NCBI GenBank assembly: GCA_015055805.1
Contig: SVHN01000001.1
Location: 241,982-305,981, forward strand
Length of the DNA: 64,000 nucleotides
From: Clostridiales bacterium
GTDB taxonomy: Bacteria > Bacillota > Clostridia > Christensenellales > Borkfalkiaceae
Direction: 5' to 3'
This document shows positions 45,258 through 47,046 of this stretch, in pieces. The translations under genes and the position numbers were made by a program. The notes beneath the pieces are model-generated. The model made no database searches, was not told the origin of the DNA, and saw only the letters and a list, made by a program, of their open reading frames with translations. Numbering within the stretch: the stretch's first letter is position 1; the number at the start of each line of letters is the position of its first letter.

Positions 45258-45404
45258 ATGAAGAAAAAAATATTGTTGATTATGATGGCGGTTTTATGCG
45301 TTTTAACGTGCGCATTTTCCGCTTGTAAACAAGATAAGCCTGACGTAGAGAGTCCGCCTGTTGGGGAATATAACGACCCAGTAATGGACGATATTTACGC
45401 ATAA
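45258..45404 (+). CDS. 48-aa mini-lipoprotein MKKKILLIMMAVLCVLTCAFSACKQDKPDVESPPVGEYNDPVMDDIYA
   Basis: Signal peptide, lipobox FSAC, tail YNDPVMDDIYA resembling YDPSLDDVYx; absent from the ORF track. Confidence 0.78.
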   Translation: MKKKILLIMMAVLCVLTCAFSACKQDKPDVESPPVGEYNDPVMDDIYA

Positions 45405-45414
45405 GGAGAAAAAT

Positions 45415-47046
45415 ATGAAAAGAGAACAAAAGGTTATTTTAACTTGGCTTTTGTCCTTTATTGCAACTATTTGTTTGTTGCTTGGTTTTTTTGCGATTTT
45501 ACCGCAAAAAGCGGTGGCATCGTCGGAAGATTTTTCTATGACCAAAGCAGAAGTTCGTTTGGACGATAATAGCGGTATACGCTTTACGGCAAAACTAACT
45601 GCATCTGCTTACGAAGATAATTGTGAATATTACGTTATGATAATCCCTTACGATTGGTTTGACGAATATAACTTATCGTTCGGTGATGATTATTATGACG
45701 TTTTGATAAATGAATATGAAATAAAGCCTGAAGACGTGTTGATTATGCGCTCGTCGCCTGTTCAGCAAACTTCGGGAGACTATCTCATTTCAGGTAGTAT
45801 TTCTAAGGTTTTATATAAAAACAGTAACCGTGAGTTTTTCGGTATTGCGTATAAACAGGATAGCGACGGAAAAAGAACTTATGCAACGGAAGATAAGTCG
45901 TACATAAAAAGTCTTGCAGCTGTTGCCGTTGCGGCTACAAAGGTAGAGAACGCTAATTACACTCAAAGTGAAAAGGCTGAGCTTGATTCTATGATACGCC
46001 GTGCGTTCAACCAACTTTCTGGCAAAAAAGAAAATAACCAAGGCGCGATTGTTTTTCAGATGAATACGGCAAAAATGAGCCTTTCTCAAGGTGATACGGC
46101 TAATTTAAGCGTACGATATGCCGAAGAGTTGGGATTTGACGTTGTTTGGGAAAGTCAAGATAAAAGTAAGGCGACGGTGGACAAAAACGGAAAAGTAACC
46201 GCGCTTGTTTCCGAGGGCGTGTGCAGCGTTACGGCAAAAGTATACGGACAGACTTGCACTACCGTGATAATGTTCCGTCCTAAAATGGCAGACAACTTTT
46301 TGGAAGATTTTTCGCACGAAGGTAGCGCGCTTAATATGAACACGAGTAATTGCGGCGACCTAAAACAATCGGGAACGTGGCTAGCAAGTTTTAAAGGGGC
46401 GCAAGGCGTTGGCTATTGTCTTGCTTATAAATCCATGAACGCTTTGGCTGTGCGTTTTGGGCGTAGTTTAGAATACCTAAAGAACTTAGACTTTGATAGT
46501 ATTACCGTTAGGCTTTATATGGATTGGGAAGGCGTGGATAAAAAAACGGGTGAGCCTATAAGAAAACATTCGCTTTGCATCGGAACTAAACGTGAATTAA
46601 ATGTTCCCACTAAAGAGTGGTATGATTTTACCGTTACCAAAAACGAACTGTTATCTAATCGCGAAGGGAATACGGCAAAAGAGCGGCACGAAAATTTTTG
46701 TAAAACCTTTAACAATGCAGGTTCGGGACAATTTTTAATGAGTTTTCACGACGGTAATAATTCCATTCCTATTTATATTGACTCAATAACTTTCGGGTTT
46801 ATTGACGTTGAAAAAAAGGCTGCCCCAACGTCGGCAGGTGAAACGTTTATATTGCCAACGGCAAAGCTTTTAGCTGGTGAAACGATATTATCAGAAGAAT
46901 ATAGTGTAAACGTTAAAGTTGGTGAAACCGAAGTCGCTGTAAATAACGGTGAAATTATAACGCAAAACGGAACTACGGTAGTAGAATATACTTTTATATA
47001 CGACGGTGTTACTTATAAAAAAACGTACGTCTTTGACGTGAATTAA
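45415..47046 (+). CDS. Secreted protein: 'GIRF' domain, BIG2-like domain, one locus-2-type module, C-terminal Ig-like region
   Basis: Signal 'MKREQKVILTWLLSFIATICLLLGFFAILPQKAVA'; 'VVWESQDKSKATVDKNGKVTALVSEGVCSVTAKV'. Confidence 0.8.
   Translation: MKREQKVILTWLLSFIATICLLLGFFAILPQKAVASSEDFSMTKAEVRLDDNSGIRFTAKLTASAYEDNCEYYVMIIPYDWFDEYNLSFGDDYYDVLINEYEIKPEDVLIMRSSPVQQTSGDYLISGSISKVLYKNSNREFFGIAYKQDSDGKRTYATEDKSYIKSLAAVAVAATKVENANYTQSEKAELDSMIRRAFNQLSGKKENNQGAIVFQMNTAKMSLSQGDTANLSVRYAEELGFDVVWESQDKSKATVDKNGKVTALVSEGVCSVTAKVYGQTCTTVIMFRPKMADNFLEDFSHEGSALNMNTSNCGDLKQSGTWLASFKGAQGVGYCLAYKSMNALAVRFGRSLEYLKNLDFDSITVRLYMDWEGVDKKTGEPIRKHSLCIGTKRELNVPTKEWYDFTVTKNELLSNREGNTAKERHENFCKTFNNAGSGQFLMSFHDGNNSIPIYIDSITFGFIDVEKKAAPTSAGETFILPTAKLLAGETILSEEYSVNVKVGETEVAVNNGEIITQNGTTVVEYTFIYDGVTYKKTYVFDVN

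What the first reader, a model, noticed from the sequence alone, without database searches (positions are those of the whole stretch)
45258..47046. Third tail carrier: a 48-aa mini-lipoprotein that is signal peptide + linker + tail
MKKKILLIMMAVLCVLTCAFSAC|KQDKPDVESPPVGEYNDPVMDDIYA. After lipidation the mature product would be only 26 residues, essentially an anchor displaying a variant of the locus 2 tail (YNDPVMDDIYA vs YDPSLDDVYx). It has no room for any other domain, so the tail itself is likely the functional part.
Basis: partly seen in the sequence, partly recalled or inferred. Interest (0 to 1): 0.82.

Follow-up and report, generated by a model that had tools for sequence, protein, structure and literature searches.

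The report
Lipid-anchored copy of a peptide tail
A 48-residue bacterial lipoprotein is little more than a membrane anchor holding up a ten-residue tail, and that tail copies the end of a neighbouring small peptide of a recently described phosphorylated-peptide (RiPP) type; the same trick recurs with unrelated tails in related genomes, a first clue to what such peptides may be for.

Summary
The 48-aa ORF (45258-45404) is signal peptide + lipobox + linker + tail (YNDPVMDDIY). The motif DPxxDD[IV]Y occurs three times in the genome, all in this locus: on the 48-mer, a 589-aa lipoprotein and a 40-aa protein.

The 40-aa protein belongs to a family of hundreds of small ORFs (leader YxxPxI...DVxTxS, acidic-aromatic tail), most beside secreted proteins sharing an unnamed Ig-like domain ("GIRF"). 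Related genomes with the family carry an HprK-like kinase, a discrete PqqD/RRE and a SpI-like peptidase (14/15); genomes without it lack all three (0/10). That is the core machinery of Linear Polyphosphorylated Peptides (LPP; PMC13381572). So the small ORFs are probably LPP-type RiPP precursors, and the 48-mer is a leaderless, lipid-anchored copy of an LPP core tail.

Tail copying recurs with unrelated sequences in about seven loci (>=35: 6 observed, 0.22 expected), including other mini-lipoproteins, one set of three adjacent tail-only genes, and two minis inside kinase/RRE operons.

Best reading: the C-terminal tail is the functional part, displayed at the cell surface by two routes. Docking to the adjacent GIRF protein is plausible but untested. 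Product, modification and binding are inference.

The parts
45258..45404 (+). 48-aa mini-lipoprotein: signal peptide (1-22), lipidated Cys23, linker, tail
   Evidence: ORF and homologues P0001/P0002
45369..45401 (+). tail YNDPVMDDIYA of the mini-lipoprotein
   Evidence: motif search; EYNDPxxDDIY kept in P0001 and P0002
42951..43073 (+). 40-aa LPP-type precursor: leader MTTKKSYTPAIINLVLLTKDIMNES + core QTPLNYDPSLDDVYL
   Evidence: leader HMM; family logo; variant P0004 ..NYNPFEDDVYF
41037..42806 (+). 589-aa lipoprotein with two beta-rich repeats, ending in the tail PYDPSLDDVYIP (42768-42803)
43079..45118 (+). 679-aa Sec-secreted protein: N-terminal GIRF domain, then two of the same repeats as the lipoprotein
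45415..47046 (+). 543-aa Sec-secreted protein: GIRF domain (about 45532-46044), Big_2, one repeat; the GIRF gene whose precursor position is taken by the mini-lipoprotein
45179..45225 (+). strong intergenic hairpin between the 679-aa gene and the mini-lipoprotein
   Evidence: fold -30.7 kcal/mol, z -6.7; no T-run
23598..25415 (+). locus 1: 605-aa lipoprotein ending VDQDNGDHIQYWQ
25479..25619 (+). locus 1: 46-aa LPP-type precursor with the same tail VDQSNGDHIQYW
25633..27567 (+). locus 1: 644-aa secreted GIRF protein

Best explanation
The 48-aa protein is a surface-displayed, leaderless copy of the core tail of an LPP-type RiPP. (1) Shown by sequence: three proteins of one locus end in the same short tail, carried by three different N-termini: a lipoprotein signal (48 aa), a large lipoprotein (589 aa), and a YxxP..DVxTxS leader (40 aa). 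(2) Supported: the YxxP proteins are precursors recruited through the leader by a genome-encoded PqqD/RRE, probably phosphorylated by the HprK-like kinase at or near the invariant Ser at the leader/core border, then cut by the SpI-like peptidase and, where the transporter is present, exported. (3) Inferred: both routes present the same free C-terminal tail outside the cell, held at the N-terminal side by a lipid on Cys in the lipoproteins and possibly through the modified Ser in the RiPP. (4) Inferred, least certain (about 0.3 on its own): the tail is a docking ligand that holds or organises the GIRF-domain secreted protein encoded next door in a glycan-uptake locus.
For: Motif three times here and nowhere else in the genome. 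Tail conserved, linker not. Precursor-tail versus neighbour C-terminus scores: >=35, 6 observed against 0.22 expected; nearest upstream gene within 300 bp, >=30, 7 of 60 against 0.25. Tail-matched loci: window x2, L088, L092, L138, L162, L189. L189 is a 153-aa lipoprotein of linker + tail only, a 42-aa precursor and a 46-aa mini-lipoprotein, all ending WTSN[YF]. Mini-lipoproteins ending WT[DG]NY lie directly beside the kinase/PqqD genes in L210 and L212. Kinase, PqqD and SpI-like peptidase each in 14/15 precursor-positive and 0/10 precursor-negative genomes; replicated across other families (Fisher about 0.002). PqqD closest to lasso RREs; kinase weakly ScmC/HprK-like; peptidase sigpep_I_arch-like; MsbA-type ABC exporter. 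Invariant Ser in 80/80 aligned precursors. 54 of 56 GIRF secreted proteins adjacent to a precursor against 34 of 156 other secreted proteins. LPP chemistry from PMC13381572.
Against: No product, phosphorylation, lipidation or binding has been measured. Most precursors (about 80 of 87) have no tail-matched lipoprotein nearby, and the ELP-type mini-lipoproteins (L118, L161, L165) do not match their adjacent precursor. L189 has no GIRF protein within the fetched region. In one genus nearly identical tails go with divergent GIRF domains, and tail/GIRF co-variation is present in genus g1 but absent in g3. In the window's own genome the kinase/RRE and the peptidase lie on different contigs and no dedicated exporter or NTP transferase was identified. 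The leader motif is not identical to the published LPP consensus.
Confidence: 0.55

Rival explanations
1. The tail is a C-terminal modification motif: a tailoring enzyme acting in trans recognises the tail itself, on small peptides, lipoproteins and large proteins alike, so the 48-mer would be a RiPP-lipoprotein hybrid (DAG-RiPP type) carrying a modified tail.
For: Direct precedent: an MNIO subfamily recognises a C-terminal motif on small peptides, lipoproteins and >30-kDa proteins (PMC12636315). Mini-lipoproteins lie inside the kinase/RRE operon in L210 and L212.
Against: Tails differ between loci of one genome, so there is no fixed recognition motif; no further tailoring enzyme was seen beside the loci; the precursors carry a leader, which a tail-directed enzyme would not need. 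That preprint judges leader-dependent lasso-type RiPPs unlikely to be compatible with a signal peptide.
Confidence: 0.2
2. The lipoproteins are partners of the RiPP (anchor, immunity or retention factor): like tails associate with each other, so lipoprotein tails hold the secreted peptide at the surface or protect the producer.
For: Tails are locus-matched; the L189 set has only tail carriers and no other secreted partner.
Against: Short acidic tails rich in Asp/Gly are not obvious self-associating sequences; no immunity or killing gene was seen.
Confidence: 0.12
3. The shared tails are recent duplications or gene-conversion copies with no function on the lipoproteins.
For: DNA of the tails is very similar within a locus (24 of 24 bases identical in the end of locus 1, 22 of 24 between two locus 2 carriers).
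Against: The same two positions vary (SL, VM, FE) while DP..DD[IV]Y is largely kept across three carriers and their homologues; the mini-lipoprotein has nothing else to select for, yet is kept; the pattern recurs in several genomes with unrelated tails.
Confidence: 0.05
4. The 48-mer is a signalling-peptide precursor, a diffusible pheromone being released from its signal sequence or its tail.
For: Known for lipoprotein signal peptides in Gram-positive bacteria (own knowledge); sizes fit.
Against: The conserved and shared part is the extreme C-terminus, not the signal sequence; no receptor or peptide-regulator gene was noticed beside the loci.
Confidence: 0.06

Closest known systems
Linear Polyphosphorylated Peptides (LPP), PMC13381572
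   Same: HprK-like kinase, discrete lasso-like RRE, SpI-like leader peptidase, MsbA-like exporter (in genus g3); short precursors with a YxxPx[I/V] leader, an invariant Ser near the leader/core border and a highly variable C-terminus.
   Different: Precursors are many and mostly scattered, next to secreted glycan-locus proteins rather than inside the cluster; Tyr-to-Ser spacing is mostly 19 instead of 18, with DVxT[AT]S instead of FETxxS and no HQ; an NTP transferase was seen only in G132; core tails are copied onto lipoproteins, which that paper does not mention.
DAG-RiPPs / RiPP-lipoprotein hybrids, PMC12636315
   Same: The same C-terminal element occurs on small peptides, lipoproteins and larger proteins.
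   Different: Those are MNIO substrates with a fixed Cys-containing C-terminal motif; here tails lack Cys (one exception in 80 cores), differ from locus to locus, and the lipoprotein copies lack the leader.
Paeninodin-type lasso peptides
   Same: HprK-like kinase and PqqD-type RRE binding a [Y/W]xxP leader.
   Different: No macrolactam cyclase or B2 protease seen beside the kinase/RRE genes; cores 10-34 aa, acidic, presumably linear.

Membership tests
LPP | discrete RRE (PqqD fold) | tested here: met
   PF05402 66.6 bits for own-genome L200:7800-8060:-; best NCBIfam hits are lasso PqqD chaperones, below their cut-offs
LPP | HprK-like kinase beside the RRE | tested here: met
   adjacent gene with FTAPSGTGKSTH P-loop; weak ScmC (E 2e-5) and HprK_rel_A (E 0.002) matches, below curated cut-offs
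LPP | archaeal-type SpI-like leader peptidase | tested here: met
   sigpep_I_arch E 9e-6 for the g3 protein, below cut-off; own-genome homologue at C1:8675-9055, 40% identical, not beside the RRE
LPP | MsbA-like exporter in the cluster | tested here: inconclusive
   present in genus g3 clusters; not beside the RRE or peptidase in the window's own genome
LPP | NTP transferase in the cluster | tested here: inconclusive
   found next to kinase/PqqD in G132 only
LPP | precursor leader YxxPxVLxHQxIxFETxxS | tested here: inconclusive
   Tyr, Pro (54/80), Ile/Leu/Val and invariant Ser met; HQ and FET not met; Tyr-Ser spacing 19 in 65/80, 18 in 13/80
LPP | polyphosphorylation of the core Ser and leader cleavage | not testable with these tools
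   needs mass spectrometry
LPP | no macrolactam cyclase | tested here: inconclusive
   none beside the clusters read; the rest of the genome was not searched
Bacterial lipoprotein | signal peptide with lipobox ending in Cys | tested here: met
   MKKKILLIMMAVLCVLTCAFSA|C by inspection, kept in P0001 and P0002; no SignalP available
DAG-RiPP (MNIO type) | conserved Cys-containing C-terminal motif modified by an MNIO | tested here: not met
   tail YNDPVMDDIYA has no Cys; the presence of an MNIO was not searched for

The most novel reading that the evidence does not exclude
LPP-type RiPPs are not diffusible natural products but surface-display or docking peptides: the C-terminal core tail is a locus-specific adaptor, and bacteria have evolved a RiPP-independent way (mini-lipoproteins and tail-bearing lipoproteins) to present the same adaptor, probably to organise GIRF-domain glycan-locus proteins on the cell.
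Probability: 0.35. Interest if true: 0.88.

Novelty: new variant of a known kind. Interest (0 to 1): 0.76.

Why it matters
The biological role of LPPs is stated to be unknown (PMC13381572). A natural lipoprotein that keeps only the end of the core, and drops the leader and the candidate phosphorylation Ser, separates the tail from the chemistry and suggests that the tail does the work at the cell surface. It gives a simple handle: a 26-residue peptide, matched precursors, a likely machinery and a candidate receptor domain next door. It also shows that precursors of this type can be numerous and scattered beside glycan-locus secreted proteins, where cluster-based genome mining would miss them.

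Tried and rejected
First tail pattern was mis-specified and found nothing; corrected. Pfam, NCBIfam and PADLOC give no family for the 48-mer, the 40-mer or the GIRF protein beyond Big_2; the best hits of the 48-mer (BamJ, EexN, DUF6520) are signal-peptide matches far below cut-off. Single-protein searches for the small ORFs found only near-identical copies; the leader-only HMM was needed. Tail/GIRF coevolution looked strong overall but failed in genus g3, so it is not claimed. GIRF fold: Ig-like sandwich plus helices, only weak PDB matches (CBM21, TM 0.4). The repeat domain shared by lipoprotein and secreted protein: no PDB match at E<=0.001, several CBMs among weak hits. A Fisher test on GIRF adjacency used a wrong cell and is replaced. 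A conserved DNA-level element instead of a protein tail: rejected, synonymous differences with the amino acids kept.

Full report
The gene. Two homologues of the same length exist in a 5.8-billion protein set; the end EYNDPxxDDIY is kept while signal and linker change. The motif is found three times in the window (0 expected in shuffles) and nowhere else in the genome: on the 589-aa lipoprotein, on the 40-aa ORF between it and the secreted 679-aa protein, and on the 48-mer. The two middle positions (SL/VM/FE) vary, the rest is largely kept. The same-genus genome G003 has the sampled regions 100% identical at DNA level and is not independent evidence.

Locus 1 has the same plan with an unrelated tail: a 605-aa lipoprotein ending VDQDNGDHIQYWQ, a 46-aa ORF ending VDQSNGDHIQYWSDDVI, then a secreted 644-aa protein. 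The 40- and 46-aa ORFs share not the tail but the N-terminal half: K..Y..P...L...D[VI]...S.

The small ORF family. A leader-only HMM (A2) finds relatives in 112 of 201 genomes of the family at E<=1; the weakest hits are not all real. 87 distinct ones were read in context. Logo: Y-19, P-16, I/L/V-14, F/L-9, D-5 (74/80), V/I-4, T-2, A/T-1, S0 (80/80, partly by the selection used to align), then 10-34 residues rich in D, G, E, N, with W/F/Y in the last ten in 95%. Most sit next to large secreted proteins; a ~180-aa domain (GA[SE][VI]R...GIRF, here 'GIRF') is present in 54 precursor-adjacent secreted proteins and 2 others, against 34 adjacent of 156 secreted proteins without it. The GIRF domain models well as an Ig-like sandwich plus helices (pLDDT 91) without a close PDB relative. 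In the window the 48-mer stands 10 bp before a GIRF gene, exactly where a precursor normally stands: leader exchanged for a lipoprotein signal, tail retained.

Tail copying is general. Precursor tails were scored against C-termini of neighbouring genes, with other loci as control: score >=35, 6 observed against 0.22 expected; >=40, 4 against 0.06; nearest upstream gene within 300 bp at >=30, 7 of 60 against 0.25. Matches: window locus 1 and 2, L088 (DDTVDFNYGYL / DDMVDFNFDNL), L092 (DMVGTDKVWGNE / DMIDGSGDKTWGGLE), L138 (DALIPDRDW / DALVKDRAW), L162 (ANDNDGKDVENW / VNDNDGNDVENW), L189. L189 has three adjacent genes that share only the tail: a 153-aa lipoprotein made of a Ser/Asp-rich linker ending DDDSHWTSNY, a 42-aa precursor ending DDERNWTSNY, and a 46-aa mini-lipoprotein ending EDNHWTSNF, an independent counterpart of the 48-mer. 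L210 and L212 carry 57- and 48-aa mini-lipoproteins ending EGWTDNY and DGWTGNY directly beside the kinase/PqqD genes. A further class ends [IV]E[LM]P.. (L118, L145, L161, L165; lipoprotein L167), resembling precursor tails of other loci (L126, L136, L166), not of their own.

The machinery. The YxxP motif suggested an RRE. PqqD is present in 14 of 15 precursor-positive and 0 of 10 precursor-negative genomes of the family; the SpI-like peptidase and the HprK-like kinase give the same 14/15 and 0/10. These genomes fall into 7 genera (4 against 3), so by genus the test is only p=0.03; it is replicated in other families of the order: of four genomes with a stand-alone PqqD, three have the small ORFs, against two of 48 others, one of them a false hit in a 594-aa frame (Fisher 0.002). 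Gene order kinase-PqqD-SpI-MsbA-type ABC is seen in genus g3, kinase-PqqD-SpI in G131 and G158, kinase-NTP transferase-PqqD-small ORF in G132. In the window's genome kinase and PqqD are adjacent (contig C10), the peptidase is elsewhere (C1).

Comparison. This gene set and precursor plan match the Linear Polyphosphorylated Peptides reported in 2026 (PMC13381572), in which LppK polyphosphorylates Ser3 of the core and LppS removes the leader after Thr-1; their role is stated to be unknown. Differences are listed in the membership table, so I file the small ORFs as LPP-like, not as proven LPPs. RiPP-lipoprotein hybrids are known for MNIO enzymes (PMC12636315), where one C-terminal motif occurs on peptides, lipoproteins and >30-kDa proteins; that is the closest functional parallel and the main rival.

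Mechanism. Shown: same tail, different N-termini, one locus; recurrence. Supported: leader/RRE/kinase/peptidase association. Inferred: export and surface presentation of the tail by RiPP and lipoprotein; docking of the GIRF protein. Against docking: L189 lacks a GIRF gene nearby and co-variation is mixed. The invariant Ser and the residues after it are not copied to the lipoproteins, only the distal end is; this fits 'anchor + spacer + C-terminal ligand' in both products, with lipid on Cys in one and possibly the modified Ser in the other.

Noticed in passing
window 22-48 kb versus G003:C8 (SVHH01000006.1, MAG SIG379): Sampled stretches are 100% identical to a contig of another genome of the genus whose kinase gene is only 62% identical to ours: recent transfer or a mis-binned contig.
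   Followed up: partly
window 45179-45225: Near-perfect hairpin (z -6.7) without a T-run between the 679-aa gene and the mini-lipoprotein; possible processing or stabilising element separating two cistrons.
   Followed up: partly
L123, L132, L137, L141, L149, L156, L168, L191 (genus g8): In genus g8 nearly all precursors share one tail (YAHVKESWLDxxWL) although their GIRF partners differ; in g1 and g3 tails differ between loci.
   Followed up: partly
L240, L241, L242 (G131): Near-identical 38-aa precursor (MKELFTAPELEVITFETEDVITTSLTNGGTGSGSKVVW) at three places in one genome, each beside a secreted protein.
   Followed up: no
L246:4683-4934: An 83-aa YxxP-like precursor with several cysteines in its core, next to a kinase/RRE-like cluster; unlike the nearly Cys-free family.
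   Followed up: no
window 41691-42752, 44027-45112, 46297-46812, 24237-25325, 26494-27564: The lipoproteins and the secreted proteins share a ~175-aa repeat (model pLDDT 83, beta-rich, only weak CBM-like PDB matches) without a Pfam family.
   Followed up: partly
G000:C18:240372-240449, just upstream of the window: A further LPP-type precursor (..DNYLGDSGDLKGIGSIGDL) lies 1.6 kb before the window starts.
   Followed up: no
L136, L166: Secreted proteins next to precursors end in a Gly/Cys-rich stretch + hydrophobic segment + basic C-terminus that looks like a sorting signal.
   Followed up: no
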